Assembly (NCBI GenBank): GCA_963855995.1
Contig: OY979727.1
Span: 11,524,946-11,588,945 of the forward strand
Direction: 5' to 3'
Source: Muricea muricata
Lineage: Eukaryota; Cnidaria; Anthozoa; Malacalcyonacea; Plexauridae
DNA: 64,000 nucleotides
A model generated the notes under the pieces. That model made no database searches and was not told the origin of the DNA. It saw only the letters and a program-made list of their open reading frames with translations. Within the stretch, counting starts at the first letter, position 1. The number at the start of each line of letters is the position of its first letter. Positions 1,899-31,323 of the stretch are shown here, one piece after another. Made by a program: the position numbers and the translations under genes.

Positions 1899-3821
1899 AC
1901 AAGACGCCTGCTAAGGCGTTCACTCCGCCTGCCAAACGAAAATGGGCACAAGGCCAGGCAGGGCTGTAACTAGAGAGTTCATTGGGGGTGGGGTACATTC
2001 ACTTATTTCTGTTCTGTCCAACTAATTCCTTTTTAAATCAATTATTATTACGGTACCTTCCAAGGCATTTTAAGACATTGCTAGCACATCTTATGCAATC
2101 ACTAAGATAACCAAAAATCAATGTCTGAGTGACCTGCCAGGCACTCTGTCCAGAGTCCTAGTAGGATTGCATTTTTTAGAATTTAATTTAGATTAAAGAC
2201 TTTAATAGTACATATGTTAAACAAGATTCTTTTGCCATAATGCCACCAACAAATAGCTGTTTTATTTTGCAAGTAAAGAAAATTTTACTAAAAGTGTATA
2301 CAATACATCAGTCTATTAAATCCATCAATTTATTAAATCTATTCTGTAGCACACTGCCTGAAGTCTCCACGATATAATTTGTTGGGAAAATGTTGGCTAG
2401 CCTTTTGATATATTGACCAGCTTTGAATTAGATATTTGATGTGTTGATAAGGTGTCAGGTAAATATTTGGCATGTTTATAAAATGTTGGTAAGGATTTTG
2501 ACTAGTTGACAAGTTTTCGAGCAGACTTTTGACATGTTGATAAGATCTGAGTTAGTCTTTTGATATGTGGACAAGCTTTGAAATGGACTTTTGACATGTT
2601 GATATGCTCCTAGTTAGATTTTTGGCATGTTGACAAGATGTCGGTTAGGTTTTTGGCTTGTTGACAAGATGTCAGTTAGGCTTTTGGCTTGTTGAAAAGA
2701 TGTTGGTTAGGCTTTTGGCTTGTTGACAAGATGCCGGTAAGGCTTTTGGCTTGTTGACAAGATGTCGGTAAGGCTTTTCACTTGTTGAAAAGATATCAGT
2801 TAGGCTTTTGGCTTGTTGACAAGATGTCGGTTAGACTTTGACCTGTACATGCCCACAAGTTGTCAGTTAGACTTTCGACATGCTGACAAAGTATTTACTT
2901 CCAGAAAGCTTCAGGTGTCAGTTAAAACATTGGTATATAGGCAGGGTGTCTGATAAAGTTTTGGCAAATTAAGAAAGTGCCAGTTGAAATTTTACTAAAT
3001 TTAAGTTAAATTTTGTTCTTTTTTTATTTTGCATTTTTGAGTTTTTTTCTTGCTATTTTAATAATTATAGCAACAATCTTTACAGTAATCGACTTAAAAG
3101 TATTTCTGTGATCTGTATTTTCTGTGATATCCAATTTGAAATCCTTTCTCTGAGTCAACTATTCAACGTGACGTTCTAACAAAACAAGTATTAAAATCGC
3201 TCATAAAAACAACAAAAATTAAAAATTAGACTAAGCTATTAAGTCTGAAGTCTCCACGATATAATTTGTTGGGAACTTTAGACTAACATATGTATTTCTG
3301 GAATTGGAATGTAAAATGTCTCTTACCTTTTATTTGCCGTTTTAAAACATTTCTGGAGCAATTTTTTGATGAAGAACCTTCCTGTCCCTTTTTGTTGACT
3401 ATTACATGTTAAAAATTGTGTTTTGTATGTAGATATTTCAGTAGAATTTGCGTTCGATTCTTGTGTAGAAATTTCTAAATTTCCTTAAAAGTAGGAATAC
3501 AACAGAAAATGACGGAAGCACGCTCTCATCGCTCCTCGGTAAAGTTTCGCGGTGGAATTTGTCGTTTTAAAACATTTTGCATGAGAATTTTTGCACGTAA
3601 AACCTTCTTGCGGTTTAGATGTTCTAGCATACATGTTAAAATGCGTGTTTTGTTGACATATTCCGCTGGAAATTGAGTTTAAACGACGTGTTTAGGTCGG
3701 CTCACGCGGCTTGTGCCCAGCGGTATCACCCATTAGCGGCGGCACCGACTTCTGACACCGAAAAAAAAAAAACAGAAACCGGGCGAATTTAAAACTCCGC
3801 CTCGCCTACGGCAGGCGGAGT
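1899..3821 (+). mobile_element. Non-autonomous Helentron/HINE-like element, full length
   Basis: It begins at the insertion boundary with a short hairpin and the subterminal 12-mer, and carries a central 31-bp minisatellite. It ends with a GC-rich hairpin (CTCCGCCT/AGGCGGAG, 3,795-3,820) directly before an A run. In the opposite arm of palindrome 1 the matching position (30,191-30,200) is an uninterrupted T run, so this end was inserted into A/T homopolymer. A subterminal segment of about 220 bp appears twice (about 3,333-3,560 and 3,561-3,790). Direct 30-bp repeats begin near 2,359 and 3,245. The layout resembles DINE-1/HINE elements. The family assignment is inferred. Confidence 0.55.
2393..2905 (+). 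repeat. 31-bp minisatellite (GACAAGATGTCGGTTAGGCT core)
   Basis: At least seven near-perfect 31-bp monomers run from about 2,630 to 2,850. More degenerate copies occur upstream and a few downstream. The monomer contains TTGACAAGATGTC and GGCTTTTGGCTTG. It sits centrally in the rolling-circle-like element, where related non-autonomous elements also carry tandem repeats. Confidence 0.9.
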
Positions 3822-4009
3822 AAAAAGGCAATTTAATTTTAATTTTGTGAATTTCGATTACAAAACATGCCTTGGACTGTCGACCAATTGATTTCGTCAG
3901 GCGATTACAGACTTGTGAGAGGAGGGGGGTAGCCTAATTACTAAAATGTAGTGAAAAAAGGACTTTCCATCTAATGGTGGGAGCAGGTTGGCGGGAACAC
4001 TGGAGAATA

Positions 4010-4441
4010 AAGGTCCTGTCACAATGCAATTTTTCTTGCAACTTGAAATGCAATTCTACTATTGGGAGATGTAAAATTGGCAAATGCAAGTTTCCATCAC
4101 AGTTTGCTGGGGTTTTTTAACGTACCAAACATTTGTCACAAATTTACTTAAGAGTAGATTTTCCCTGTAGCAAAAAAGATGGCAAATGTCGATTTTACCA
4201 GAGTGCATGGCAGTCTGAAATTGTTTAAAAAGGCAAATTAACGTCTTTTGAAGAACAGACAGAAGACAATAGGTTATTTTCACACTTGTGTTAAAATTTC
4301 AATCCAGTAGCTTTGCTTCTTGTCATCTTTTCCCACGTATTCTTTCTTGATACCTGCAATGCATTCTGGTAAAATCGACATGTCGCCATCTTTTTTGCTA
4401 CGGTGAATGCAAGGAAAAGTGCACCGTGTGACAGGGCCTTA
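4010..4441. mobile_element. MITE with AGGYCCTGTCACA terminal inverted repeats
   Basis: The left end (AAGGTCCTGTCACA) and right end (TGTGACAGGGCCTT) are inverted. Inside, GTAGCAAAAAAGATGGC (about 4,168) and its inverted relative (about 4,386-4,402) form a second nested inverted repeat ending in CGATTTTACCAGA. The mirror copy is at 29,580-30,011. A shortened relative lacking the outer ends is at 9,795-10,035. The superfamily is not determined. Confidence 0.65.
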
Positions 4442-6768
4442 AGGGTAAGAGGTGGATAGAGAAGGAGACGGAGCAGTTACAAGTGCAAGAAAAATTGCCT
4501 TGAGGGTGGGAGGTGGATAGGAGGAGACGGAGCAGGATGTGGGAGTCGTGCAAGGTCGGGAGGTTAAAAAAGAACAAGGAATGTTATGTTTTTAATGCCT
4601 TTTAGACTTTTCTTGAGGCAATTAAAATTCAAACTGTCAAATCCAAACACTGTACAGAATGGCCGACTTTACGTGGTCTTTAGTTTTTACACAACCACTT
4701 GCATTGTTATCTTTTGCAGTTTGTTTACCATTTCAGTTATCTATCTTCAATAGAATTCTTTGAAATTTGTTTGTAGATCGACAAAATGCTTAACCTCCTC
4801 TCAACAACTGGCAGATTATGAAAAATGAAATTGTTAAAGGTATTGGAATATTGCATGTACAATATTGAATATGGGACAATTTGGGACAGTATAATTTTGG
4901 ACATGACGGTTTCATTCTCACCTAATTTGACGATTATTTTGTGGGTACACATACCGTGGAATCTCATGTGCTCCAGAAGCATTTTAATCTTAGAAAAAGT
5001 CAAATAATGATGAACTGTGTTTTAAAAGAAAGTTAGAATCTTATTTGGTTCAAATCAATTGAATTATGGCCCAAGAGTTCATGAAAACACATACAAAAGG
5101 CTTTCTTAAAAAACTGAAATATCAAATCTAGCAATTTTATATGTTATGCCTCTAAACAACACAATTCTGTTTCTAAAAATTGGTACCCTACTAGACCTAT
5201 ATGCATGATTTGGACATATTTATTTTTACCCATTAGAATATAAATTTGTGTTTAATCATTCGTGTTTGTCATTATTTGACTTTGTAATGTTGGTTAAACA
5301 TAAGGAGATTGAGGTGACTTTGCCAGAAACAAAAACATCCATTATTATACTAAAATTTCAATATATGTAGCAATTAAAACTAACCACAGGAAATATATTT
5401 CTACTTTTTAATTGAAATGTTTCTGTTATATGCACTATATCATATTTTTGATAAAAAATTACAACACCTATGTTATTTCCTGGTTTACTATCTCAATCAT
5501 CTTTTGTTTAAGCTGGCTTTGAGTGTTCATTTGAAAGTTTGGAAAGTTCATTTGAAAATCACAATAGTTCTCAATGTTATATTGGACCCTTTAAAGTTAA
5601 AAAAATACTTTGTAATATTTTATACTACTGGTAATTTATCTTAGGTACAGACTTTGTGATTTTGTACTAGAATGTTGACTTTCAAACTTTAAGATGAACT
5701 ACTTATTAAGGACAAAATAAGCTAGCATATTGTCTTTTGTTTACAAAGTGGAACTTGTTTGGAATTGAGATGAACTGATGCAGTTGTTCTTTAACTTTAT
5801 CAATTAATTACATATCTTAAATGAAAAAGAAAACCACAACTTGCCAAATAAATTCTGTGGGCTCTTTTTATTAGCAAAGAAAAGATGTGGCGGATGTAAG
5901 AATTTAAGAGTAAAAAAGTTTCCTTGGACTAAAAAAATTGACAGTATGCCAGATTTTCTAGATAAACAAGCAGTACAGATGTTGGCCAATAATAAGTATA
6001 AGTAACTACAATTTTTAATTTTAAAAGTTTTCTATTGATGCCTGGATACAGTAAATACTTTACCAGAGTTCTTCGTATTACATCGACTTGAAAAAGTTTT
6101 AAGTCACATGAAGCTTTTAGTTGATACTATGCAATTTCAAATTTTACAGACTTCTTAATTAACATGCCAAATTTACCTTGTTGAACATAAGGTCTTTCCT
6201 GAGAAAAAGTAAAACTGTCTGGCATTATATGGAGTAGAATAATTTAAATTAGTTTGAGACTTTGATTTGATAACAATTTTGATTTGTACTATTTACAATA
6301 CAAGTGACCGGGTTGTATCGGATATACAAACCCAAGCTGAAGGCGAGATATCTGACATACACAGATGCGAATGTTGTAAATGGCTTGTGAAACTCGTCAA
6401 TTTTATACATCAGATCTATAGCAAAGTGATTTTGAAAATACCGATTCTGTAAGATGAGAAAATGATTTCTTTTGTGTTTCCTGTATGATTTATTACTTTA
6501 TAAGTTTCTTAATTAAAATTACAACATATTGCCTACTGGAACTTTTTATATTGTTTGGTTGTGGTGAATTTGTATTTTGGCAATTGAAATATTTCTGAAT
6601 TTGTATGTGCATTTCCTTTGCTTCAGTTCAAGTTTACATTTCAAATATTCCACTTTGTAATACTTGCGTGGTAATAATAATATAAGAAAACAGGTTTACA
6701 TGGCTCTTGAATATAGTCTTTTCAACAAGTAAGTAAAGATGAATTTATACTTCAAAGAGATATGTTCC

Positions 6769-7287
6769 TAACCTGACAATGGTACCTTCCAAAAAGACTA
6801 AATTTAAATTGATTCTTCGAATAAATTTTTTACTTTTCAATCCAAGATCAATCTAAGTTATGTATTTCTACTTTTATTTTGGTCTCTTTAACACTGAAAC
6901 TATCAATTGTATATAAAGCAACTTCACTATCGAGTGACTTCATTAGTTGCTGGGCAAAGCCAAAGCATTGATTTTTCGGCTGTTTTCAATGAAAAATAGA
7001 ATTTTGCCCAAAGTTATCTCAAATAAATTATCACAATTTGAACAAAAAGCTTCTGTTCTTGTGCCGACCAGAAAAATGAGATGTCTGAGACTTTCTTTGT
7101 ATTTTTTTGCGAAAAATAGATCGCATGCACTGTTATGCAAAGAAAAGTGTAAGAGATTGGTTTCTGAAAAATGTCGTGCTACACACAATATTCTAAAAAT
7201 GCTTGGTTTTTATTCTATGTATTTTTGAATTTTTTGTTAAAAAAAATAAAGGTAGCAATGTTTAGTGCATTTCACATTGTCAGGTTA
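6769..7287. repeat. ~520-bp inverted-repeat element with TAACCTGACAATG ends
   Basis: TAACCTGACAAT at the left and ATTGTCAGGTTA at the right delimit ~520 bp. A related element of similar size sits at 37,762-38,306 in palindrome 2, with AACCTGACAAG-type ends. A wider nested inverted repeat involves GTCTTTTCAACAAGTAAGTAAA (split near 6,716) and its partner near 7,870-7,905. Mirror copy at 26,733-27,251. It is probably a MITE; no target duplication was identified. Confidence 0.5.
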
Positions 7288-8100
7288 GAAACGCAATAAG
7301 AAAAATGTGGCTCCGAACATTACAGCTTGGTCAATTTGGAATTTATAAAAAAATCGTTTCTTCGTTGTTTTTCGACGTTTTGAAGGGTTGTTTCGAGTAC
7401 AAAAAAGTATTTTTAGGAAGAATTATGTGCCCACGTTACATGTCTCAAAGCCATCAAAATTCGTTGGTAATTCGTGCATGTATTTTTTCTGACTTATAAA
7501 AGCACAATTGATTAAAAATGATATTTTTCTTTTGACAAAAATACCTTTCTTCTGTGAGGCTGGCTGTATTTGAAAAAGCGTTGGTCAACGCTCCGCCAAA
7601 ACTCGTGGGTTTTCTCCGGGTACTCCGGTTCTTCCCACTGGGAGAGTTGACAGGGTAGTTACATATGGTTATAAAAATGTGACTAACTTTTGAAAACCTT
7701 TCTACTTAGACTTGTTAAGCCTTCTCGTCATCTCTATCAGTTGCATGTTTTGAGCCACATGTTTTTCTTTGTAATTGTGAAACAACTCGTTATATGCTGG
7801 GTAAACCTTTGCAAAACTCTCAAAATTTATCACTTCAAGTTGTTTCATTGTTATAATATATTTTGAAGTATAAACATTTACTTACGTTGAAAAGACCCAA
7901 GTTTTTTAGGACTTTGTTCATTCACTTGTGTTATTGTTCTCTCTGCCATGTTCTGTTTTCTTCTGTTGTTATTTTAATAAGTACAATGTGTGGTAGTTAA
8001 TCTCTTTTTATTGTTATTCAAATTGTATGTAATCTTTACAAATTTTTTCAATAAATTGTTTACAAAATTTACTTGTGACCCCTTTTTAATTAAAAATTCA

Positions 8101-8114
8101 ATTCCCATGGGAAT
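8101..8114. promoter_or_regulatory. ATTCCCATGGGAAT palindrome, COE/EBF-like site
   Basis: This is a perfect 14-bp palindrome matching the known EBF/COE consensus ATTCCCNNGGGAAT. It is one of 16 intact copies in the window, next to the long hairpin module. Mirror copy at 25,906-25,919. Palindrome 2 has equivalents at 37,068-37,081 and 48,113-48,126. Function is inferred from the motif only. Confidence 0.4.
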
Positions 8115-8140
8115 TGAGAAATTGAATAAAAAAAATCCCC

Positions 8141-8258
8141 CTACCCCGGCCAGCTCCCCAAGTGCCACTTCCACCTAAGTAGAAGTACTTATACATGTAG
8201 TACAAGTACTTCTACTTATTCACGGTGGAAGTAGCACTCGGAGAACTGGCCGGGGTAG
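8141..8258. repeat. 118-bp hairpin with CTACCCCGGCCAG ends
   Basis: CTACCCCGGCCAG at 8,141-8,153 pairs with CTGGCCGGGGTAG at 8,246-8,258. Pairing continues inwards through CACTTCCACC/GGTGGAAGTAGCAC and AGTAGAAGTACTT/AAGTACTTCTACT. Equivalent hairpins lie at 25,762-25,879, 34,975-35,092, 36,924-37,041, 48,154-48,271 and 50,103-50,220. It could be a short MITE or a structured RNA segment. Confidence 0.85.
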
Positions 8259-8444
8259 CCGGCAAAGAGAAGACCAACTTTGCAAGTGCTAATACAATTG
8301 CTAAGTTGATCTTCCCTAGAGAGCAGCCGCGCGTACCTAACAAATTAAAACAACAAACGTTAGTGACTTAAGTACTTAGCATGCAAATTTGATTCCCAAA
8401 GCCAAAATGTCAAGTGCCCCCCGCTGATCCTACCAACTGCCTAC

Positions 8445-8569
8445 CTGCCTCAGTTCTAAGCTGTCTTCCTCAGTTCTAAGCTCCTGCATTCCATTCGTTA
8501 CCTTCACTTTCCTCACCATCGCACAGTCACTCACAGCTGATAAACCCGCATGCACCACCACCACCCCGA
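8445..8569 (-). other. Conserved exon-like segment (GVVVVHAGLS... frame)
   Basis: Read on the minus strand, GGTGGCAG precedes a 125-bp segment that ends GAGGCAG before GTAGGC, resembling an acceptor and a donor. The frame is open and conserved at 25,451-25,575, 34,655-34,782, 36,611-36,735 and the mirrored palindrome-2 copies. Between palindromes 1 and 2 I count about three synonymous and three amino-acid-changing substitutions, so coding constraint is not demonstrated. The peptide includes RKVKVTNG and QELRTEED. I do not recognise a family. Confidence 0.3.
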
Positions 8570-9092
8570 CTGCCACCCAATTTCGAAAATTAAAAGAGTT
8601 AAAATTTCGGTAAAGTATGCATTTTAAATGCAATTTATTTGGATATTTTAGATCAAACGTAAACAGAAAAAGCTCGTACATAAAAACAGGTGAGAATTCT
8701 ATTTAAAATTTGCTTGCAAAATATAAAACTTAATTCGCATTTTTCTTAGTTAATAGTATAGATCAATTTAGTTGATGTTGAAACCTACTCTTAACTGTTT
8801 TGTTAGAAGTGACGACAGATTTTGGTTTTTAAGCATACTTTCAAAAATTTTAATTCCTTTAATAAACCTAACCCCATGCAACTTACACACGGCGCACACC
8901 CTCGCAGTCCATACATTTAGCTAATAAATTACGTTATAAACAAAAAAGCAAAATAAAAAGATAAATTACGTTATCTCTAGCTACTTAAACCCACTTAGAC
9001 TGAGTTTTTGATTGAATTTTCAAACGTAAAACCTTAGCTGAATGGGCATGGGCTTTTCGTTGTGTTAACTGTTCCGGAGTAAATATAAACCT

Positions 9093-9334
9093 GGGGCCGG
9101 TTGTATCAAAGGCGTTTAGCTTAAACGGTGGATAAGTGAAATTTAAAAATCAGTTTTACACCTAGTACGGAACCGAAATTATGAGTTGAAATAGAATAAA
9201 TATTTAGTTTTATATACAATTGTTCTTCTCAGGTCAAATAACTTCAGCTGGTTTGTTTATACAACATGGAAACGTGTTTCATATTTTTGACTTATCCACC
9301 GTTTAAGCTAAACGCCTTTGATACAACCGGCCCC
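9093..9334. mobile_element. 242-bp MITE with GGGGCCGGTTGTATCAAAGG ends
   Basis: Terminal inverted repeats of ~45 bp run from the GGGGCCGG end through TTTAGCTTAAACGGTGGATAA. The copy at 24,686-24,927 occupies the same place in the other arm. The matching sites in palindrome 2 (near 34,091 and 36,060) lack it, so they are empty sites. A possible CAG duplication flanks it. Harbinger-like or another class is possible. Confidence 0.85.
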
Positions 9335-9679
9335 TGATACTTACCAAAGTCCAAGGCTGGGTCAAATAAGCATGAGAATTAGGCAAAAATAAAAAGCAAT
9401 TGAAACTCAACAGATTCACTAAAGTTGTTTTTTTTTTTGGCAACTTACATCCTTAAGTGTAGATGACATGCAATTTTTAATGCCGTAATTCTCACACTTA
9501 TTTAACCGAAACGCCTTCATTTGCATGGTACCTCGCAGCTGCTCTCAAACCACCTTCGTAATTTGCCAAAACAAATCTGAAAGCACCAAGATACTTATCA
9601 TATTAATAATCAAAGAGGATTCGCATTATGCAGTAATTACCATAAACAGACGCATCACCATTGAAACAAAGCATGCTGT

Positions 9680-9791
9680 ATTCCCATGGGAATTTAAAAT
9701 GCACAAAAAAATATAATGATCCTACTGATTTGCATGGATGTATGAACCAAATTAGCTAAGAAACAAAGAAATGATATATTCCCTTGGGAAT
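9680..9791. promoter_or_regulatory. Pair of COE/EBF-like palindromes 98 bp apart
   Basis: ATTCCCATGGGAAT lies at 9,680-9,693 and ATTCCCTTGGGAAT at 9,778-9,791. Equivalent pairs with 96-99 bp spacing recur at 33,508/33,607, 35,486/35,582, 49,600/49,696 and 51,568/51,667. In the opposite arm of palindrome 1 one member (24,189-24,202) has lost a C in one half-site. Confidence 0.4.
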
Positions 9792-9794
9792 TTA

Positions 9795-10035
9795 ATGTAG
9801 CAAAAAGATGGCGGGTGTTGATTTTACCAGAATGCCTTGCGGTCTGAAATCGTTTAAAAACTTAAGGTAAATTAACCTCGTTTGAGGAACAGACAGATAG
9901 GTTATTTTGTCACTTGTGTTAAAATTCCGTCCATTAGCTTATGTTAAATATCATTTCACTGCTATTCTTGATTGATACCCGCATTAAATTCTGGTAAAAT
10001 CGACATGCCACCATTTGTTTTGCTACGGTGAATTG
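9795..10035. mobile_element. Shortened relative of the 4,010-4,441 MITE
   Basis: It begins GTAGCAAAAAGATGG and ends in an inverted relative of that phrase. Its interior (GTTTAAAAACTTAAGG, GAACAGACAGATAGG, CACTTGTGTTAAAATT) follows the 4-kb copy. It lacks the outer CCTGTCACA repeats. Mirror copy at 23,945-24,186. Confidence 0.6.
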
Positions 10036-10935
10036 GAATACAAGTCAAATTTTCTCGCTTTTTAACCAGAGAACACATTCTTTAAAGGTAGAACGACGGA
10101 ATTGATCGTTTACAATCGACGCCATCTTTGTTGACGTTTGAAACACATGGCAACCACAAAGTATCTATTCATTATATCTGATCCTATCGAGCCATACATC
10201 TTTAAAGTATCATTCATAATACGCTAAAACTAACGATGAAATAGTAAATTGACACTAGTGTTTCGCTGTAAACAGCTGAAGTAATCTGCAGAGTCAACCA
10301 AGATGGCGCCCAATCACACGAAATGACGGCATGTGCAAACCAAAAATAGTGACCAAATGCATCAACTATAATTTAGTGGCATTATTACGAAACTTATTTT
10401 TGTAAAACGTTCAATCCTACATGTTATTTTGTTTTGTTTTTAGAAATATCCAAATCCAAATGTTAGAGACGAAATTTCCAGGCGTTAAGGTATTGTTTCT
10501 TTAAAAAATATTGTCGACATTTACCATATTTTTACCTGTTTTTTGACTCGAAAATTGACTGCCAAACTCCTAGGTATTCTATTTAATTATTTTGTTGAAT
10601 GTATTTGATATCAATGTTATTTCAATCCAATTTTTTTCTCTTAATTTGCTGTCTTCTCTTTTTCATTAACGAGAAATATCTATTAAATCCTCTTTGATCC
10701 CTCAATAATAAGTATCTTGTTTTCTACTAACTTGCACATTACCACTACTTTCTATTACAATGTCGTGTCTTCTCATTCTTGTGGATTGTTGTTTTGTGGG
10801 TCTTGTCGTCCAGGATCGTTCATTCTTTTCTTTTCTTGTGCGTTTTTTTCACATCCCATCACCCTTTACAATAGTAGAAAGAATTAAATCATGAGATGAT
10901 AGTTACGAGTAATTTATAAACTATAACATATTAAA

Positions 10936-11380
10936 CAATTATTGGATGAGGTTTTTGTGATATGCGGAATTATCAATGTCGAGGTAAGAGTTATCAGCCG
11001 AGCCGAAGGCGAGTCAGATAACTCTTACCGAGAGATTGATAATTTTGCATATCACAAAAACCGAATCCGATAATTGCTTTATTATACATTTTAAGTCTTT
11101 TTCCTCGAGCAATTGACGCATTTCGCCCTCGGAAGAGCTTAAAAAGGAAGATGCCATAACATGAAACAGAAAATATCGAAAAAATGTTGTTGCCATGCCA
11201 ACCATTGATGCCAACGAATACCGCATACTGTAATAATCTGCACCGTAGGCTCAACATCCAGATAACTCAGTTATCTGCTAGCAGATAACTGAGTTATCTG
11301 CAGATTGTGTGATAGTCGCATTTATCTGCATACAACTGATCAATCACAACGCATAAAACAACTGCAATGTATAATAAAAT
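10936..11380. mobile_element. Composite palindromic MITE (hairpin plus TTTTATTATACATTG repeat)
   Basis: A ~160-bp hairpin (10,936-11,095) pairs TTTTTGTGATATGC with GCATATCACAAAAA and GGTAAGAGTTATC with GATAACTCTTACC around GCCGAGCCGAAGGCGAG. It is followed by a region flanked by TTTATTATACATT and CAATGTATAATAAAA, which contains a second hairpin (CAGATAACTCAGTTATCTG, about 11,258-11,305). Relatives are at 22,247-22,910, 39,955-40,541 and 44,564-45,150. In palindrome 2 it sits at a different module, so it is a mobile family and not ancestral to the unit. Confidence 0.75.
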
Positions 11381-20549: not shown

Positions 20550-20936
20550 TTGTCCGCGAAAGTTAGGGAACTGGAAATGACACCAGAAATGTCTTTAAAT
20601 TCCGCCATTTTGTGTTGCGCTTTTCTTGGAGTTGCATACATACAGTTTAAGCTCACACGTACACGTTCTACACTTGCTGTATTTCTTGCTATCGGGGTAT
20701 CATCATGCCGGGAATTTGTCCATGAGTTTCTTCGTCGACTAACCTCTGTGACCTGTCACGCCTATTATAATTACTTAGTCCTCTCTAATGCTTGTGAACG
20801 TAGTTTTCTTTGCTTATCTTGTAAACAGTTTTCTGAACATCGTAATTTTTTTTTGAAAGAATGCCAAGTAAAAAGTGAATACAACAACCATCAACTAATG
20901 ATGCAACAAGATGGGAAAGAATTCATATCGACATAA
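20550..20936 (+). pseudogene. 128-codon open frame, not conserved; unrecognised
   Basis: This is the second-longest open frame in the window, but the start would need an alternative codon unless Met at about residue 10 is used. The protein has a Cys-rich middle (CERSFLCLSCKQF) and no family I recognise. The mirrored copy in the left arm has an in-frame TAG (GTTGCATAG) and the palindrome-2 relatives are frameshifted. It may be a decayed exon or chance. Support for a real protein is weak. Confidence 0.2.
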
Positions 20937-21132
20937 GAAGTAAATCACAAGCCGTCTCCATCAGATGTTAAGATGCAAATACTATCACAATGTACGGTTT
21001 GTTAAAGTCAATTCAATTAAAGCTTAGTGTCCTATATTCTAAAATATTTTGTAACATTAATTTTCTCCTTATTTTATGTTGGTTGACTGGACACGAGTGA
21101 GCTAGTTACCTACTGGACCGCCTTGATGCTCC

Positions 21133-21228
21133 ATGAAGAGAGTGCGCCAACCAGATGAAACCATAAACAGCATGATGAAACGAGAACAACCGAAGCCAAG
21201 AAGATCCAAAGATAGAGTGAAAGTAAGT
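21133..21228 (+). other. Short open segment ending in a strong donor (GTAAGT)
   Basis: About 30 codons from an ATG, rich in Arg, Lys and Pro, run into GTGAAAGTAAGT. A diverged relative in palindrome 2 (from about 32,116) also has an open frame from an ATG and ends at GTATGT. The peptides share little beyond length and a few charged positions. It is a possible exon or exon relic. Confidence 0.25.
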
Positions 21229-21868
21229 TTTTTTATTTTATCTTGTCGTTTCCATTTTTTAGCAGTTCAGCTTTTGTTTCAATAAAAATTAACATCTCGC
21301 ACTAACGTTGCTAGTGTCGGTAGTACTGTAAAAAGCACACAGGACCTTTCACTACCTGAAACAATAAAAAAAAACAAAATTCGACTTTCGAGCGAATTAA
21401 AGCCTTTCGTTGGGGAGTTGGTCGTAAAGATAGAAATTTAATGCGCTGTCTGCCATCTTAGATTCATATTTGATCTCGTTGACACGTAAAATCTTGATTC
21501 CCAAACAGCTTGAACTAAGCTAGTTTTGATATAAGTTACATTTCACGTGCACAGTAATTCTCAAAGAGATATCGGCAATAAATTTGAGAGAGCTTTTGAG
21601 AGAGATTAGTGCGAGATATTAATTTTTATTGTTCGAAAGAGCTTTAAGAATTTACACATTCCTTACGTGTTGTTTAATTCTCGAGATATTTTAATCTAAA
21701 TTCATAAATTAGGGTAGCTGCAAGTTGTGTGCGTGTGAGAAATAAAGACTCCTTCACGGCTATGATTTTCTTTTGTGTTTTGCTCACGATTTATTAATGA
21801 TTCTCGAGATTTTAATAAAAAAATTTCATATTAACAGCTTACACAATAATTTGGCCGGCCTAATTAAT

Positions 21869-22131
21869 ACTATTTTATAATATACTGAGTGTCAAAGTTC
21901 ATTTATTCCTGTTTCTTATTGGTTAAGAACGTATCACGTGATAGTGGAGAAATTCTATTGTCTCCCTGGCAACGTAGCTAAGCGGTGGACATTACTTTTA
22001 TTCACCGGTAGACAACAAATCCACAAAGCCTCACGTAGCCATGTCAGGTAAAAGGTAATCCTTTTTACACATGTTTGATTGATTTGTGGTACTTTTCTTC
22101 TCTTTTGGCACTCAGTATATAATAAAATACT
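21869..22131. mobile_element. 263-bp MITE-like insertion with ~28-bp inverted ends, right arm only
   Basis: The ends share TATTTTATWATATACTGAGTG followed by CAAA in inverted orientation, with about four mismatches. It is absent from the corresponding left-arm site near 11,375-11,390. The AT-rich ends overlap similar flanking sequence, so the exact boundary and target duplication are uncertain. Confidence 0.6.
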
Positions 22132-22234
22132 TATTGACTGAGACCTCGGGAAAGCAGTATGTTTTGTGGACCCTCGACATCGACAGTCTCTGGTCCACAA
22201 AACATACTGTTTCCCTCGGTCTCAGTCAATAAGT
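22129..22234. mobile_element. ~106-bp near-perfect hairpin MITE, right arm only
   Basis: ACTTATTGACTGAGACC and GGTCTCAGTCAATAAGT delimit stems of about 44 bp (through GTATGTTTTGTGGACC) around a ~19-bp loop. It abuts the preceding element. It is absent from the left arm. Confidence 0.8.
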
Positions 22235-22328
22235 GTTAATTACTATACATTGCAGTTGTTTTATGCGTTGTGATTGGTCAGTTGTATGCAGATAAATGCG
22301 ACTATCACACAATCTGCAGATAACTCAG

Positions 22329-22553
22329 TCATACAATAAGAATACATAGAAGGGCCACTCAGCAGTGCAACATGTCACACTATGTTTATGCAGTTTACAG
22401 GCTGCCACCAGCCAGTTCAGCATTCCTATTGGCCAGAAAATGCAATTGACTGGCTGAGAAAATGCTAATAACGTGCGTAATGCGACATGCGCGGCTTCAA
22501 AAACTCCAAAGGCTCCGACGCGAGTGGCCCTTCTATGTATTCTTATTCTATGG
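22329..22553. mobile_element. 225-bp MITE with AAGAATACATAGAAGGGCC ends and CTCAG target duplication
   Basis: Inverted ends of about 31 bp (three mismatches near the tip) surround ~160 bp. CTCAG is present at 22,324-22,328 and 22,554-22,558. The left arm retains the uninterrupted CAGATAACTCAGTTATCTG at about 11,258. This insertion happened after the arms separated, or escaped conversion. Confidence 0.9.
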
Positions 22554-22929
22554 CTCAGTTATCTGCTAGCAGATAACTGAGTTATCTGCATGTTGAGCCT
22601 ACGGTGCAGATTATTACAGTATGCGGTATCCGTTGGCATCAATGGTTGGCATGGCAACAACATTTTTTCGATATTTTCTGTTTCATGTTATGGCATCTTG
22701 CTTTTTAAGCTCTTCCGAAGGCGAAATTCGTCAATTGCTCGAGGAAAAAGACTTACAATGTATAATAAAGCAATTATCGGATTCGGTTTTTGTGATATGC
22801 AAAATTATCAATGTCTTGGTAAGAGTTATCTGACTCGCCTTCGGCTCGGCTGATAACTCTTACGTCGACATTGATCATTTCGCATATCACACAAACCTCA
22901 TCCAATAAGTGCTTAATATGTTATAGTTT

Positions 22930-23013
22930 ACTTATTAAGCTTTGTGGAAACACCACGTAAATTTATTATTGCAATAATAAATTTACGTGGTGTTTCCACA
23001 AAGCTTAATAAGT
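22930..23013. mobile_element. 84-bp perfect palindrome in a right-arm insertion
   Basis: ACTTATTAAGCTTTGTGG is mirrored exactly at the other end, with centre ATTATTGCAATAAT. The phrase ATGTTATAGTTT occurs before it (about 22,918) and again near 23,053, so about 130 bp in total was inserted relative to the left arm. Confidence 0.85.
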
Positions 23014-24685
23014 ATATTGTATTCACCATGCAAACGTACAAGAAACTTATCATGTTATAGTTTATAAATTATTCGTAACTATCATCTCATGACTTAATTC
23101 TTTCTACTATTGCAAAGGGTGATGGGATGTGAAAAAAACGCACAAGAAGAGAAAAGAATGAACGATCCTGGACGGCAAGACCCACAAAACAACAATCCAC
23201 AAGAATAAGAAGACACGACATTGTAATAGAAAGTAGTGGTAATGTGCAAGTTAGTAGAAAACAAGATACTTATTATTGAGGGATCAAAGAGGTTTAATAG
23301 ATATTTCTCGTTAATGAAAAAGAAAAGACAGCAAATTAAGTGAAAAAAATTGGATTGAAATAACATTGATATCAAATACATTCAACAAAATAATTAAATA
23401 GAATATCTAGGAGTTTGGCAGTCAATTTTCGAGTCAAAAAACAGGTAAAAATATGGTAAATGTCGACAATATTTTTTAAAGAAACAATACCTTAACGCCT
23501 GGAAATTTCGTCTCTAACATTTGGATTTGGATATTTCTAAAAACAAAACAAAATAACATGTAGGATTGAACGTTTTACAAAAATAAGTTTCGTAATAATG
23601 CCACTAAATTATAGTTGATGCATTTTGTCACTATTCTTGGTTTGCACATGACGTCATTTCGTGTGATTGGGCGCCATCTTGGTTGACTCTGCAGATTACT
23701 TCAGCTGTTTACAGCGAAACACTTGTGTCAATTTACTATTTCATCGTTAGTTTTAGCGTATTATGAATGATACTTTAAAGATGTATGGCTCGATAGGATC
23801 AGATATAATGAATAGATACTTTGTGGTTGCCATGTGTTTCAAACGTCAACAAAGATGGCGTCGATTGTAAACGATCAATTCCGTCGTTCTACCTTTAAAG
23901 AATGTGTTCTCTGGTTAAAAAGCGAGAAAATGTGACTTGTATTCCAATTCACCGTAGCAAAACAGATGGTGGCATGTCGATTTTACCAGAATTTAATGCG
24001 GGTATCAATCAAGAATACCAGTGAAATGATATTTAAGATAAGCTAATGGACGGAATTTTAACACAAGTGACAAAATAACCTATCTGTCTGTTCCTCAAAC
24101 GAGGTTAATTTACCTTAAGTTTTTAAACGATTTCAGACCGCAAGGCATTCTGGTAAAATCAACACCCGCCATCTTTTTGCTACATTAAATTCGCAAGGGA
24201 ATATATCATTTCTTTGTTTCTTAGCTAATTTGGTTCATACATCCATGCAAATCAGTAGGATCATTATATTTTTTTGTGCATTTTAAATTCCCATGGGAAT
24301 ACGGCATGCTTTGTTTCAATGGTGATGCGTCTGTTTATGGTAATTACTGCATAATGCGAATCCTCTTTGATTATTAATATGATAAGTATCTTGGTGCTTT
24401 CAGATTTGTTTTGGTAAGCAGGAACAATGAAGTCATTGTTTGTGTACACTAAAGCAAATTACGAAGGTGGTTTGAGAGCAGCTGCGAGGTACCATGCAAA
24501 TGAAGGCGTTTCGGTTAAATAAGTGTGAGAATTACGGCATTAAAAATTGCATGTCATCTACACTTAAGGATGTAAGTTGCCAAAAAAAAAAACAACTTTA
24601 GTGAATCTGTTGAGTTTCAATTGCTTTTTATTTTTGCCTAATTCTCATGCTTATTTGACCCAGCCTTGGACTTTGGTAAGTATCA

Positions 24686-24927
24686 GGGGCCGGTTGTATC
24701 AAAGGCGTTTAGCTTAAACGGTGGATAAGTCAAAAATATGAAACACGTTTCCATGTTGTATAAACAAACCAGCTGAAGTTATTTGACCTGAGAAGAACAA
24801 TTATATATAAAACTAAATATTTATTCTATTTCAACTCATAATTTCGGTTCCGTACTAGGTGTAAAACTGATTTTTAAATTTCACTTATCCACCGTTTAAG
24901 CTAAACGCCTTTGATACAACCGGCCCC
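24686..24927. mobile_element. 242-bp GGGGCCGG MITE (right-arm copy)
   Basis: It mirrors 9,093-9,334 at the matching position. Presence in both arms but absence from palindrome 2 shows that the insertion preceded duplication of the arms, or was copied by conversion. Confidence 0.85.
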
Positions 24928-25450
24928 AGGTTTATATTTACTCCGGAACAGTTAACACAACGAAAAGCCCATGCCCATTCAGCTAAGGTTTTACGTTTGA
25001 AAATTCAATCAAAAACTCAGTCTAAGTGGGTTTAAGTAGCTAGAGATAACGTAATTTATCTTTTTATTTTGCTTTTTTGTTTATAACGTAATTTATTAGC
25101 TAAATGTATGGACTGCGAGGGTGTGCGCCGTGTGTAAGTTGCATGGGGTTAGGTTTATTAAAGGAATTAAAATTTTTGAAAGTATGCTTAAAAACCAAAA
25201 TCTGTCGTCACTTCTAACAAAACAGTTAAGAGTAGGTTTCAACATCAACTAAATTGATCTATACTATTAACTAAGAAAAATGCGAATTAAGTTTTATATT
25301 TTGCAAGCAAATTTTAAATAGAATTCTCACCTGTTTTTATGTACGAGCTTTTTCTGTTTACGTTTGATCTAAAATATCCAAATAAATTGCATTTAAAATG
25401 CATACTTTACCGAAATTTTAACTCTTTTAATTTTCGAAATTGGGTGGCAG

Positions 25451-25575
25451 TCGGGGTGGTGGTGGTGCATGCGGGTTTATCAGCTGTGAGTGACTGTGCG
25501 ATGGTGAGGAAAGTGAAGGTAACGAATGGAATGCAGGAGCTTAGAACTGAGGAAGACAGCTTAGAACTGAGGCAG
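25451..25575 (+). other. Conserved exon-like segment (right-arm copy)
   Basis: It mirrors 8,445-8,569. GGTGGCAG precedes it and GTAGGC follows CAG. The open frame reads on from an upstream Met at 25,339 and stops at 25,590, shortly after the donor-like site. Confidence 0.3.
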
Positions 25576-25761
25576 GTAGGCAGTTGGTAGGATCAGCGGG
25601 GGGCACTTGACATTTTGGCTTTGGGAATCAAATTTGCATGCTAAGTACTTAAGTCACTAACGTTTGTTGTTTTAATTTGTTAGGTACGCGCGGCTGCTCT
25701 CTAGGGAAGATCAACTTAGCAATTGTATTAGCACTTGCAAAGTTGGTCTTCTCTTTGCCGG

Positions 25762-25879
25762 CTACCCCGGCCAGTTCTCCGAGTGCTACTTCCACCGTGA
25801 ATAAGTAGAAGTACTTGTACTACATGTATAAGTACTTCTACTTAGGTGGAAGTGGCACTTGGGGAGCTGGCCGGGGTAG
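25762..25879. repeat. 118-bp hairpin (right-arm copy)
   Basis: It mirrors 8,141-8,258, with the same stems and a COE/EBF-like palindrome 27 bp downstream (25,906-25,919). Confidence 0.85.
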
Positions 25880-28800
25880 GGGGATTTTTTTTATTCAATT
25901 TCTCAATTCCCATGGGAATTGAATTTTTAATTAAAAAGGGGTCACAAGTAAATTTTGTAAACAATTTATTGAAAAAATTTGTAAAGATTACATACAATTT
26001 GAATAACAATAAAAAGAGATTAACTACCACACATTGTACTTATTAAAATAACAACAGAAGAAAACAGAACATGGCAGAGAGAACAATAACACAAGTGAAT
26101 GAACAAAGTCCTAAAAAACTTGGGTCTTTTCAACGTAAGTAAATGTTTATACTTCAAAATATATTATAACAATGAAACAACTTGAAGTGATAAATTTTGA
26201 GAGTTTTGCAAAGGTTTACCCAGCATATAACGAGTTGTTTCACAATTACAAAGAAAAACATGTGGCTCAAAACATGCAACTGATAGAGATGACGAGAAGG
26301 CTTAACAAGTCTAAGTAGAAAGGTTTTCAAAAGTTAGTCACATTTTTATAACCATATGTAACTACCCTGTCAACTCTCCCAGTGGGAAGAACCGGAGTAC
26401 CCGGAGAAAACCCACGAGTTTTGGCGGAGCGTTGACCAACGCTTTTTCAAATACAGCCAGCCTCACAGAAGAAAGGTATTTTTGTCAAAAGAAAAATATC
26501 ATTTTTAATCAATTGTGCTTTTATAAGTCAGAAAAAATACATGCACGAATTACCAACGAATTTTGATGGCTTTGAGACATGTAACGTGGGCACATAATTC
26601 TTCCTAAAAATACTTTTTTGTACTCGAAACAACCCTTCAAAACGTCGAAAAACAACGAAGAAACGATTTTTTTATAAATTCCAAATTGACCAAGCTGTAA
26701 TGTTCGGAGCCACATTTTTCTTATTGCGTTTCTAACCTGACAATGTGAAATGCACTAAACATTGCTACCTTTATTTTTTTTAACAAAAAATTCAAAAATA
26801 CATAGAATAAAAACCAAGCATTTTTAGAATATTGTGTGTAGCACGACATTTTTCAGAAACCAATCTCTTACACTTTTCTTTGCATAACAGTGCATGCGAT
26901 CTATTTTTCGCAAAAAAATACAAAGAAAGTCTCAGACATCTCATTTTTCTGGTCGGCACAAGAACAGAAGCTTTTTGTTCAAATTGTGATAATTTATTTG
27001 AGATAACTTTGGGCAAAATTCTATTTTTCATTGAAAACAGCCGAAAAATCAATGCTTTGGCTTTGCCCAGCAACTAATGAAGTCACTCGATAGTGAAGTT
27101 GCTTTATATACAATTGATAGTTTCAGTGTTAAAGAGACCAAAATAAAAGTAGAAATACATAACTTAGATTGATCTTGGATTGAAAAGTAAAAAATTTATT
27201 CGAAGAATCAATTTAAATTTAGTCTTTTTGGAAGGTACCATTGTCAGGTTAGGAACATATCTCTTTGAAGTATAAATTCATCTTTACTTACTTGTTGAAA
27301 AGACTATATTCAAGAGCCATGTAAACCTGTTTTCTTATATTATTATTACCACGCAAGTATTACAAAGTGGAATATTTGAAATGTAAACTTGAACTGAAGC
27401 AAAGGAAATGCACATACAAATTCAGAAATATTTCAATTGCCAAAATACAAATTCACCACAACCAAACAATATAAAAAGTTCCAGTAGGCAATATGTTGTA
27501 ATTTTAATTAAGAAACTTATAAAGTAATAAATCATACAGGAAACACAAAAGAAATCATTTTCTCATCTTACAGAATCGGTATTTTCAAAATCACTTTGCT
27601 ATAGATCTGATGTATAAAATTGACGAGTTTCACAAGCCATTTACAACATTCGCATCTGTGTATGTCAGATATCTCGCCTTCAGCTTGGGTTTGTATATCC
27701 GATACAACCCGGTCACTTGTATTGTAAATAGTACAAATCAAAATTGTTATCAAATCAAAGTCTCAAACTAATTTAAATTATTCTACTCCATATAATGCCA
27801 GACAGTTTTACTTTTTCTCAGGAAAGACCTTATGTTCAACAAGGTAAATTTGGCATGTTAATTAAGAAGTCTGTAAAATTTGAAATTGCATAGTATCAAC
27901 TAAAAGCTTCATGTGACTTAAAACTTTTTCAAGTCGATGTAATACGAAGAACTCTGGTAAAGTATTTACTGTATCCAGGCATCAATAGAAAACTTTTAAA
28001 ATTAAAAATTGTAGTTACTTATACTTATTATTGGCCAACATCTGTACTGCTTGTTTATCTAGAAAATCTGGCATACTGTCAATTTTTTTAGTCCAAGGAA
28101 ACTTTTTTACTCTTAAATTCTTACATCCGCCACATCTTTTCTTTGCTAATAAAAAGAGCCCACAGAATTTATTTGGCAAGTTGTGGTTTTCTTTTTCATT
28201 TAAGATATGTAATTAATTGATAAAGTTAAAGAACAACTGCATCAGTTCATCTCAATTCCAAACAAGTTCCACTTTGTAAACAAAAGACAATATGCTAGCT
28301 TATTTTGTCCTTAATAAGTAGTTCATCTTAAAGTTTGAAAGTCAACATTCTAGTACAAAATCACAAAGTCTGTATCTAAGATAAATTACCAGTAGTATAA
28401 AATATTACAAAGTATTTTTTTAACTTTAAAGGGTCCAATATAACATTGAGAACTATTGTGATTTTCAAATGAACTTTCCAAACTTTCAAATGAACACTCA
28501 AAGCCAGCTTAAACAAAAGATGATTGAGATAGTAAACCAGGAAATAACATAGGTGTTGTAATTTTTTATCAAAAATATGATATAGTGCATATAACAGAAA
28601 CATTTCAATTAAAAAGTAGAAATATATTTCCTGTGGTTAGTTTAAAAATGCTACATATATTGAAATTTTAGTATAATAATGGATGTTTTTGTTTCTGGCA
28701 AAGTCACCTCAATCTCCTTATGTTTAACCAACATTACAAAGTCAAATAATGACAAACACGAATGATTAAACACAAATTTATATTCTAATGGGTAAAAATA

Positions 28801-29579
28801 AATATGTCCAAATCATGCATATAGGTCTAGTAGGGTACCAATTTTTAGAAACAGAATTGTGTTGTTTAGAGGCATAACATATAAAATTGCTAGATTTGAT
28901 ATTTCAGTTTTTTAAGAAAGCCTTTTGTATGTGTTTTCATGAACTCTTGGGCCATAATTCAATTGATTTGAACCAAATAAGATTCTAACTTTCTTTTAAA
29001 ACACAGTTCATCATTATTTGACTTTTTCTAAGATTAAAATGCTTCTGGAGCACATGAGATTCCACGGTATGTGTACCCACAAAATAATCGTCAAATTAGG
29101 TGAGAATGAAACCGTCATGTCCAAAATTATACTGTCCCAAATTGTCCCATATTCAATATTGTACATGCAATATTCCAATACCTTTAACAATTTCATTTTT
29201 CATAATCTGCCAGTTGTTGAGAGGAGGTTAAGCATTTTGTCGATCTACAAACAAATTTCAAAGAATTCTATTGAAGATAGATAACTGAAATGGTAAACAA
29301 ACTGCAAAAGATAACAATGCAAGTGGTTGTGTAAAAACTAAAGACCACGTAAAGTCGGCCATTCTGTACAGTGTTTGGATTTGACAGTTTGAATTTTAAT
29401 TGCCTCAAGAAAAGTCTAAAAGGCATTAAAAACATAACATTCCTTGTTCTTTTTTAACCTCCCGACCTTGCACGACTCCCACATCCTGCTCCGTCTCCTC
29501 CTATCCACCTCCCACCCTCAAGGCAATTTTTCTTGCACTTGTAACTGCTCCGTCTCCTTCTCTATCCACCTCTTACCCT

Positions 29580-30011
29580 TAAGGCCCTGTCACACGGTGC
29601 ACTTTTCCTTGCATTCACCGTAGCAAAAAAGATGGCGACATGTCGATTTTACCAGAATGCATTGCAGGTATCAAGAAAGAATACGTGGGAAAAGATGACA
29701 AGAAGCAAAGCTACTGGATTGAAATTTTAACACAAGTGTGAAAATAACCTATTGTCTTCTGTCTGTTCTTCAAAAGACGTTAATTTGCCTTTTTAAACAA
29801 TTTCAGACTGCCATGCACTCTGGTAAAATCGACATTTGCCATCTTTTTTGCTACAGGGAAAATCTACTCTTAAGTAAATTTGTGACAAATGTTTGGTACG
29901 TTAAAAAACCCCAGCAAACTGTGATGGAAACTTGCATTTGCCAATTTTACATCTCCCAATAGTAGAATTGCATTTCAAGTTGCAAGAAAAATTGCATTGT
30001 GACAGGACCTT
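29580..30011. mobile_element. CCTGTCACA MITE (right-arm copy)
   Basis: It mirrors 4,010-4,441, with the same inverted ends and nested internal inverted repeat. Confidence 0.65.
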
Positions 30012-30199
30012 TATTCTCCAGTGTTCCCGCCAACCTGCTCCCACCATTAGATGGAAAGTCCTTTTTTCACTACATTTTAGTAATTAGGCTAACCCCCTCC
30101 TCTCACAAGTCTGTAATCGCCTGACGAAATCAATTGGTCGACAGTCCAAGGCATGTTTTGTAATCGAAATTCACAAAATTAAAATTAAATTGCCTTTTT

Positions 30200-30840
30200 T
30201 CAATAAATTTGAACCAGAACCAACTCTATACATAGAACTGTCTCAGCATACTTTCTTCGACAATCTCAACAATTCAAGACCTCATTCAGTTTCTATAGCG
30301 GATTTCATGGTATTATTATCGAACCAACTTCAACTGAAAACGGTAGCCTTAATCTTACATGCGACCATAGCCATGCTTGGAAAGCACAAACTTACAATAC
30401 TCGAAAATTGTACTTATTTCCAGTCTGATCTCTCAAAAATCGATCTCTATGCACAATCTAAGTACTTTGGTACAAATAATGATAGAAAATAAAGCATATT
30501 ACCTTAAAACAAAGTTAGGATGCATGAAAATTTAGAGGACTTTCAAGGAGCAAAATCTTCGAGCTAGAGAAAAATTTTGAAAAAATAGTATTCGGAAAAC
30601 CTTCGAGCAGCGCCGGAAACCGACGAATTCCGAGGAACGCCGAAACTACCACTTTGTGTCGACATGCTCCGAGCAAGTTCCTTGTTCCTGATTCAGAAGA
30701 AGCTGTATCACAGATCAGATATATACAGATAGGGAACTCGCACTCAATAACCTCAATTTTTGTGTCCCCGTGCTCACGTCATTCCACGCGCCACGCAAAT
30801 TGCTCTGGCAAGTGTCGTTCGTCGTGTTTTCAGTCAAAAG
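30200..30840. other. Unpaired segment related to the palindrome-2 core
   Basis: It has no partner in the left arm. It resembles 41,690-42,170: both contain AAATCGATCTYTATG, AATAAAGCATATTACC, CTTAAAACAAAGTTA and a stretch with CGGAAAACCTTCGAG-type wording. Palindrome 1 therefore extends here towards its own version of the palindrome-2 centre. The 100-codon frame at 30,190-30,492 is broken in the relative and is not credited as a gene. Confidence 0.6.
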
Positions 30841-31323
30841 CATAGGAAAAACGCCGTTCGAAAGTACAAAAATGAATATTTTTGCGAAGTTCCTTCACCG
30901 ATCTTCATTTTGTATGTATGTAGATATTTCAGTAGAATTTGCGTTTGATTCTTGTGTAGAAATTTCTAAATTTCCTTAAAAGTAGGAATAAACCAGAAAA
31001 TGACGGAAACACGCTCTCAAAACTTCACCGCGACACATCGCTGGAATTTGTCGTTTTAAAGCATTTTGCATGAGAATCTTTGCACGTAAAACCTTCTTGC
31101 GGTTTAGATGTTCTAGCATGCACGTTTAAATGCGTGTTTTGTTGACACATTTCGCTAGAAATTGAGTTTAAACGCCGTGTTTAGGTCGGCTCACGCGGTT
31201 TGTGCCAGCGGTATCACCCATGAGCGCTGCACCGACTTCTGACACCGAAAAAAAATAATAAAAAAAAAAAAAACAGAAACGGGGCGAATTTAAAACTCCG
31301 CCTCGCCTACGGCAGGCGGAGTA
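30840..31323 (+). mobile_element. Second, truncated copy of the rolling-circle-like element's right end
   Basis: The last ~415 bp (from about 30,908) closely match 3,421-3,821, including ATATTTCAGTAGAATTTGCG and the terminal hairpin. Weaker similarity may reach back to ~30,840. The left ~1.4 kb and the minisatellite are missing. It ends exactly at the insertion boundary. Confidence 0.75.

What the first reader, a model, noticed from the sequence alone, without database searches (positions are those of the whole stretch)
1899..31323. 29,425-bp insertion with exact empty sites and rolling-circle-like ends
The flank is uninterrupted at two other copies in the same window, which fixes the boundaries to the base. 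There is no target duplication. The left end carries ACTCCGCCTGCC 23 bp inside; the right end carries its inverse at the terminus beside a hairpin. An internal copy of the right end lies at 3,821. This matches a Helentron-type element that ignored its first 3' end and carried off ~27.5 kb, including an entire palindrome. That would be an exceptionally large capture.
Basis: partly seen in the sequence, partly recalled or inferred. Interest (0 to 1): 0.9.

Follow-up and report, generated by a model that had tools for sequence, protein, structure and literature searches.

The report
Giant palindromic rolling-circle transposon family
The 29-kb insertion is one copy of a young, dispersed family of mobile DNA that carries an almost perfect 26-kb palindrome between the ends of a small rolling-circle-type transposon.

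Summary
In detail: a 29,425-bp insertion interrupts a repeat that is uninterrupted twice in the window and has no large insert in 12 of 12 copies fetched, two of them the window's own. The Helentron-type reading is right in kind, wrong in polarity and history. The ends fit Helentron/HINE anatomy on the MINUS strand: 5' end at 31,322, 3' end at 1,900. So the internal copy at 3,821 is a second 5' end and no 3' end was bypassed. Nor is it a one-off capture. In 20 of 20 near-identical relatives fetched, 1,900-3,821 continues into the same palindrome, with another left flank ending in AA; 13 right ends were found, all with the same inner junction and GGCGGAGT|AA. The left junction occurs 172 times genome-wide. 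It is a giant non-autonomous HINE-like composite: complete 1.9-kb HINE, 26.4-kb palindrome, 0.4-kb HINE 5' end, amplified at about 0.3% divergence. Palindrome arms are homogenised within copies. Symmetric forms with 5' ends on both sides also exist; 8 of 16 examined pairs have reverse-complement flanks, possibly an assembly artefact. The autonomous partner could not be tested.

The parts
1900..31322 (-). whole mobile element (29,423 bp between the flanking AA pairs); 5' end at 31322, 3' end at 1900
   Evidence: empty sites; 20/20 left and 13/13 right ends of dispersed copies
1900..3821 (-). E1: complete HINE with its own 5' end (3821) and 3' end (1900)
   Evidence: 20 fetched copies plus the window; a solo HINE of the family with the same ends, L073
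1904..1919 (-). 3' palindrome ACGCCT-TAGC-AGGCGT between 3' subTIR and 3' terminus
   Evidence: fold (stem seen, but z only -1.3 to -1.7); single match in window at up to 3 mismatches
1922..1933 (-). 3' subTIR GGCAGGCGGAGT, 22 nt from the 3' terminus
2399..2889 (.). central tandem repeats of E1 (31/62-bp units)
3794..3821 (-). internal 5' end: subTIR + 7 bp + complementary IR, hairpin (5' end of E1)
   Evidence: z -4.2
3822..16600 (+). left arm of the cargo palindrome V (centre approximate)
16601..30199 (-). right arm of V; 30199/30200 is the empty counterpart (T-run) of E1's insertion point 3821/3822
30200..30914 (-). V sequence continuing on the right side only
   Evidence: 30409-30530 matches the array unit at 43077-43198, 76%
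30915..31322 (-). E2: 5' fragment of a second HINE (3'-truncated), supplies the outer 5' end
   Evidence: 94.9% substitution identity to E1, own indels; other family ORFs continue where E2 breaks off
31295..31322 (-). outer 5' end hairpin (subTIR + IR)
   Evidence: z -4.4
1898..1899 (.). AA (TT on element strand) at the 3' flank
   Evidence: AA in 20/20 copies
31323..31324 (.). AA (TT on element strand) at the 5' flank
   Evidence: AA in 13/13 right ends found
53839..53840 (-). empty site 1
61797..61798 (+). empty site 2

Best explanation
The insertion is one copy of a dispersed family of giant non-autonomous Helentron-type (HINE) elements. The mobile unit reads, on the minus strand: HINE 5' end (E2) - 26.4-kb palindrome V - complete HINE (E1) with the only 3' end. 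Shown: exact ends, target, unit structure at both ends of 13 other copies, number of junctions, youth, arm homogenisation. Inferred: a single founding event (identical inner junctions), and the mechanism. A helper Rep/helicase from an autonomous relative nicks at E2's 5' end and unwinds through V and through E1's own 5' end; it stops at the first 3' hairpin it meets, that of E1. E2 has lost its 3' part, so reading on to a neighbour's terminator is what known read-through predicts. The composite (E1 inserted in a T-run of one V arm, E2 fragment beyond the other arm) then multiplied as a unit. Inside each copy the two arms exchange sequence.
For: Ends and targets: 20/20 left flanks end AA|CAAGACGC, 13/13 right ends found read GGCGGAGT|AA, with differing host flanks. 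Same E1/V junction in 20/20; same V/E2 junction in 13/13 (14 copies with the window, 99.68% pairwise). Lengths 29,428-31,754 bp in 13 copies. Genome counts at up to 3 mismatches: E1/V junction 172, V/E2 junction 316, family 3' end 1188, reversed-pattern control 0 in each. E1 99.73% pairwise in 21 copies. Five database ORFs stop matching within one or two residues of the same 3' point (read by eye). HINE anatomy in papers. A solo HINE (1.17 kb, L073) has the same ends and AA on both sides. Arm homogenisation: 0 of 20,000 permutations.
Against: No Rep/helicase partner was seen: the PF14214 search of the genome did not complete, and Pfam on 30 chosen ORFs of the window gave only one family with E below 0.01, in an ORF outside the element. 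The 3' subTIR lies 22 nt from the 3' end, nearer than the 38-60 nt given for mite HINEs, though within the 20-40 bp given for Fusarium Helitrons. The 3' hairpin is weak by energy. Of the other copies only the ends were read (about 11 kb with flanks of 10 copies, 8.5 kb of 10 more); the middle was not. 7 of 20 copies did not show their right end in the 6 kb fetched; for 3 of these one search lists a V/E2 junction at or just beyond that stretch. A 26-kb palindrome is an awkward cargo for a single-strand intermediate. V/E2 junctions outnumber E1/V junctions and symmetric copies exist, so the asymmetric unit is not the only form.
Confidence: 0.86

Rival explanations
1. One-off capture: a plus-strand Helentron ignored its first 3' end at 3,821 and carried off 27.5 kb once.
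For: Empty sites, end motifs and the internal end copy.
Against: 20/20 fetched copies carry the same palindrome after 3,821, 172 junctions in the genome, polarity features and flanking Ts fit minus, one 3' end found in the window.
Confidence: 0.03
2. Homologous recombination: V, as a circle or by conversion, entered an ordinary HINE already sitting in the target.
For: E1 and E2 are related direct repeats (94.9% by substitutions); one locus alone cannot exclude it.
Against: It would have to recur at each of 20 loci with the same E1/V junction, and at 13 with the same V/E2 junction; differences between E1 and E2 are spread along the piece with no mosaic seen.
Confidence: 0.04
3. V is a self-mobile palindromic element with its own transposition system, and the HINE ends are bystanders.
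For: V-like sequence (about 72% to U) lies at many places, several as inverted pairs, and the flanking array is a relative; symmetric copies without E1 exist.
Against: Insertion boundaries are exactly the HINE termini with the HINE target in 20/20 left and 13/13 right ends; no coding capacity found in the ORFs tested.
Confidence: 0.07
4. Assembly artefact: palindromes and junctions produced by mis-walking a repeat graph.
For: In 8 of 16 symmetric pairs the host flanks next to the two 5' ends are reverse complements of each other (7 of them at 100%), and in 2 more pairs the fetched stretches are reverse complements without a 5' end in them; an assembler turning back in a palindrome would produce this. 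Two of the eight share one flank sequence. The window's outer V arms differ at only 5 of 5,579 positions.
Against: Asymmetric copies with both ends found have different flanks on the two sides in 13/13; arms carry private substitutions in one arm only at 27 sites; inner V arms and array arms differ by ordinary substitutions, 38/28 and 70/38 transitions/transversions; unit length is stable.
Confidence: 0.05

Closest known systems
HINE / DINE-1-like non-autonomous Helentrons (PMC4067079, PMC7492417; passages and sections seen)
   Same: 12-bp subTIRs, complementary IR at the 5' end, 3' palindrome, central tandem repeats, TT target with Ts on both sides, high copy number
   Different: 29-32 kb, against 1.9 kb (E1) and 1.17 kb (solo L073) for family members here; body is a 26-kb palindrome; two 5' ends; 3' subTIR only 22 nt from the end
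FoHeli composites of Fusarium (PMC5148889; passages and section 16 seen)
   Same: several 5' termini combined with one 3' terminus; proposed start at the outer 5' end and stop at the first 3' end
   Different: duplicated 5' piece there is typically under 200 bp and ascribed to self-insertion; here about 27 kb of other DNA lies between the two 5' ends
Read-through capture by Helitrons (Helraiser, PMC4778049; maize up to 39 kb, PMC6431247; passages seen)
   Same: 5' end essential, 3' end dispensable; a downstream Helitron can supply the stop
   Different: cargo is a near-perfect palindrome, and the composite has been amplified (172 left junctions)
Canonical Helitrons (5'-TC...CTRR-3', A|T target)
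   Same: 3' hairpin
   Different: terminal and target signatures not present

Membership tests
Helentron/HINE | identical subTIRs of at least 11 bp | tested here: met
   12/12 bp
Helentron/HINE | 5' subTIR at the 5' terminus with complementary IR of 7-12 bp, 1-12 bp away | tested here: met
   ACTCCGCCTGCC-7 bp-AGGCGGAGT on minus; hairpin z -4.2 and -4.4
Helentron/HINE | 3' subTIR subterminal with a palindrome between it and the 3' end | tested here: met
   present, but 22 nt from the end (38-60 in mite HINEs; 20-40 in Fusarium); hairpin weak by energy
Helentron/HINE | insertion in TT / T-rich sequence, at least two Ts on each side, no other target duplication | tested here: met
   20/20 left and 13/13 right ends; empty sites
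Helentron/HINE | central tandem repeats (common, not universal) | tested here: met
   31/62-bp units in E1
Helentron/HINE | autonomous partner with Rep, helicase and endonuclease sharing the ends | not tested
   PF14214 search of the genome not answered
Helentron/HINE | circular intermediate | not testable with these tools
   needs DNA from the organism
Canonical Helitron (Helitron1) | 5'-TC, CTRR-3', A|T target | tested here: not met
   ends are (TT)ACTCC...GTCTTG(TT); target TT
FoHeli-type composite with two 5' ends and one 3' end | two 5' ends, single 3' end, moved as a unit | tested here: met

The most novel reading that the evidence does not exclude
The element uses its palindrome. During rolling-circle transposition the displaced strand, started at the E2 5' end, folds back at the palindrome's centre and copies its own arm back to the 5' terminus (snap-back synthesis, like a rolling hairpin). 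This would renew identical arms at each move and produce the symmetric form with a precise 5' end on both sides and no 3' end at all. That form was found with different host flanks at 5 of 16 examined pairs.
Probability: 0.25. Interest if true: 0.9.

Novelty: new variant of a known kind. Interest (0 to 1): 0.74.

Why it matters
A non-autonomous rolling-circle-type element of about 30 kb whose body is a 26-kb near-perfect palindrome has multiplied: 172 left junctions x 29.4 kb would be about 5 Mb, 1.1% of the 453-Mb assembly, if every junction marked a full copy (inference; full length was shown for 13 other copies, and at least one locus carries two junctions). That shows natural, repeated mobilisation of very large captured DNA by HINE-type ends, and tests how a palindrome passes through a supposedly single-stranded intermediate. 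Arm-to-arm homogenisation, known to me from sex-chromosome palindromes (recalled), can be measured here over many replicate copies of known youth. The genome also offers matched sets: solo HINEs, asymmetric composites, symmetric derivatives.

Tried and rejected
Viral-contig scans for the RT ORF, the hairpin, a degenerate hairpin and the tandem unit gave no confirmed hit in 4 scans. Rfam at gathering threshold and ARAGORN: nothing. Pfam on 30 ORFs that I chose from the lists (not every ORF): the only family with E below 0.01 is PF09004 in ORF 57691-58296, a domain that also accompanies PF00078 in its database relatives. I first favoured a single read-through event from E2 to E1; the genome search replaced that by an amplified family. 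I considered homologous insertion of a circle into a pre-existing HINE and dropped it after the 20-copy comparison. I considered that V's palindrome formed after insertion; rejected because the left arm ends exactly at E1's 5' terminus while the right arm runs on over the intact T-run. Polarity from the number of 5' versus 3' database ORFs (61 vs 5) was not used, because ORF luck could explain it. Paper searches with Helitron plus capture, palindrome or composite terms listed no title describing such an element; that covers only the open-access library, listings of 3 to 20 papers each and starts of abstracts.
Full report
OBSERVATION. The window contains an inverted-repeat array (unit U, about 15 kb, alternating orientation, centres near 42,552 and 57,830) and, in one unit, a 29,425-bp insertion. 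The two flanks lie edge to edge at 53839/53840 and 61797/61798. In 12 of 12 U copies fetched from the genome the site has no large insert; two of the 12 (L029, L032) are the window's own empty sites, and L040 aligned over only part of the 120-base probe (9-97, junction included). The filled site has AA on both sides, the empty site one AA. The end motifs are far beyond chance. Identity of the three units is 99-100% in the bins around the point; unit 3 departs only some 170 bp further on.

ANATOMY. On the minus strand the element starts at 31,322 with TT|ACTCCGCCTGCC-GTAGGCG-AGGCGGAGT, a strong hairpin (z -4.4), and ends at 1,900 with GGCAGGCGGAGT, a 6-bp-stem hairpin and CTTG|TT. The 3' hairpin is weak by energy (z -1.3 to -1.7). 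The papers on HINEs (PMC4067079, passages and sections 6, 7, 12; PMC7492417, passages) describe the same asymmetry: 5' subTIR at the terminus with a complementary IR, 3' subTIR set back behind a palindrome, Ts on both sides, central tandem repeats, no target modification. Hence 3,821 and 31,322 are both 5' ends and 1,900 is the only 3' end found at up to 3 mismatches.

THE TWO HINE PARTS. E1 (1900-3821) is a complete HINE with 31/62-bp tandem repeats. E2 (30915-31322) is a 5' piece, 94.9% identical to E1 by substitutions (370 of 390 aligned columns), with its own indels. Translating a non-coding stretch of E1 and searching the protein database found 61 chance ORFs of the family on public contigs among 62 candidates. 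Many of them continue where E2 breaks off, so E2 is the truncated one (read by eye). A search with the 3' part gave 5 ORFs among 11 candidates at E up to 1 (weakest 0.014); all 5 stop matching within one or two residues of the same point, after which their flanks differ (read by eye).

THE CARGO. V (3822-30199) is a palindrome with 99.4-100% identity in most of the outer 5.5 kb and about 95-99% inside, lower at the centre. It is a diverged relative (about 70-84% in collinear pieces) of the surrounding U unit. Pfam on the ORFs tested showed no coding capacity in the element. The left arm begins exactly at E1's 5' terminus; the right arm runs over the same T-run intact. So the palindrome existed before E1 inserted, and E1 was in place before the composite moved (inference).

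NOT A ONE-OFF. The window is G000:C12:11,524,946-11,588,945 in a 453-Mb assembly. E1 gave 40 scored matches out of 2435 candidates; 28 of the 40, the window's own included, span all 1,923 bases. I fetched the 20 best besides the window. All 20 continue into V after 3,821 and all 20 have another host sequence before 1,900, ending in AA. Left flanks (300 bp) are not all unrelated: 4 of the 190 pairs share a repeat stretch of 30-255 bases at 70-90%. Stretches of 6 kb around the expected right ends gave 13 right ends; all 13 carry the same V/E2 junction and read GGCGGAGT|AA. In the other 7 the end was not in the stretch; for 3 of these (C6:2,972,551, C5:8,756,451, C5:13,883,217) one search lists a V/E2 junction in the right orientation at or beyond it. 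Lengths are 29,428-31,754 bp in 13 copies, median 29,957. Pairwise identity is 99.73% in E1 (21 copies, minimum 99.37) and 99.68% in the E2 end (14 copies, minimum 99.06), so one composite was made and amplified recently (inference).

COPY NUMBER. Whole-genome pattern counts at up to 3 mismatches: E1/V junction 79+93 = 172, V/E2 junction 149+167 = 316, family 3' end 561+627 = 1188; reversed-pattern controls were 0 in all three. So there are many more ordinary HINEs of the family. Two were read on C1: L073 is a solo HINE of 1.17 kb with the same ends and AA on both sides; L074 shows the 3' end after AA, but its 5' end was not in the stretch.

ARM HOMOGENISATION. In 11 copies (10 plus the window; outer 2.1 kb of each arm, 1.4-1.5 kb in two) left and right arms of one copy are more alike (mean 99.76%) than arms of different copies (mean 99.58%); 0 of 20,000 permutations reach this. 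Private substitutions occur in both arms 12 times and in one arm 27 times (sites with gaps or without a 90% majority in the other copies left out), and the window has private 15- and 9-bp gaps in both arms. Without exchange between arms, private changes in both arms should be almost absent. One copy (c28) has arms less alike (99.33%) than the between-copy mean.

SYMMETRIC DERIVATIVES. Among the first 100 V/E2 places listed (of 316) there are 17 inverted pairs 27.4-28.7 kb apart, i.e. E2 on both sides. I examined 16: 8 have 5' ends with host flanks that are reverse complements of each other (7 at 100%, one 143/147); 2 more are reverse complements of each other over the stretch fetched but no 5' end lay in it; 5 have different flanks with TT|ACTCC and GGCGGAGT|AA at the two ends; 1 was inconclusive. 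Two of the 8 (L095/96 and L097/98) share one flank sequence. One C3 locus has E1 on both sides with the same nested insertion in both. The reverse-complement flanks may be genomic fold-back copying or an assembler turning back; I cannot tell. The 5 with different flanks motivate the snap-back idea in the section on the most novel reading; whether their two flanks come from one target site was not tested.

MECHANISM. Shown: unit, ends, target, youth, homogenisation. Inferred from experiments on Helraiser seen in passages (PMC4778049: 5' end essential, 3' end not; hairpin is the stop signal) and from the model of Fusarium composites with two 5' ends (PMC5148889 section 16): a helper Rep/helicase starts at E2, passes V and E1's 5' end, and stops at E1's 3' hairpin. 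The helper was not seen: its search did not complete.

SCALE. A review seen in passages gives Helitrons up to 39 kb in maize and 14 kb in fungi (PMC6431247), so 29 kb is large but not a record; palindromic cargo and its amplification are what I did not find described (searches named in Tried and rejected).

Noticed in passing
G000 C1-C9: Of the 90 exact E1/V junctions listed on C1-C9, 0 lie on C1 (124.2 Mb) or C2 and 3 on C3 (60.7 Mb), while C4-C9 (14-19 Mb each) hold 87; ordinary HINE 3' ends are common on C1 and C2. The giant element seems to avoid the largest chromosomes. The list stops after 100 exact places (of 172 matches), so C10 onward and inexact matches are not covered.
   Followed up: partly
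window 1-1899, 31323-64000: Inverted array of a 15-kb unit U (arms mostly 97-99% alike, differences mostly ordinary substitutions), with relatives on C12 and C10 in inverted pairs 7-8 kb apart.
   Followed up: partly
right flanks of L041, L043, L044, L050, L051, L053, L055, L059, L060: In 9 of 13 copies the right flank within 0-2.5 kb matches window U/V sequence at 71-83%; U/V-like DNA is abundant, so preference for it was not tested.
   Followed up: no
window 57691-58296 (+): ORF with PF09004, a domain found together with PF00078 in database relatives (167 at E <= 0.001), sitting at the second array centre; it looks like part of a reverse transcriptase.
   Followed up: partly
C3:19,891,985-19,918,469 (L071, L072): Both arms of one palindrome end in E1, and both E1 copies are interrupted at the same point by the same ~2.05-kb insertion.
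   Followed up: partly
window 42480-42626: Centre of the first array palindrome has a non-palindromic spacer of roughly 125 bp with a duplicated GAATCTATCGATAT.
   Followed up: no
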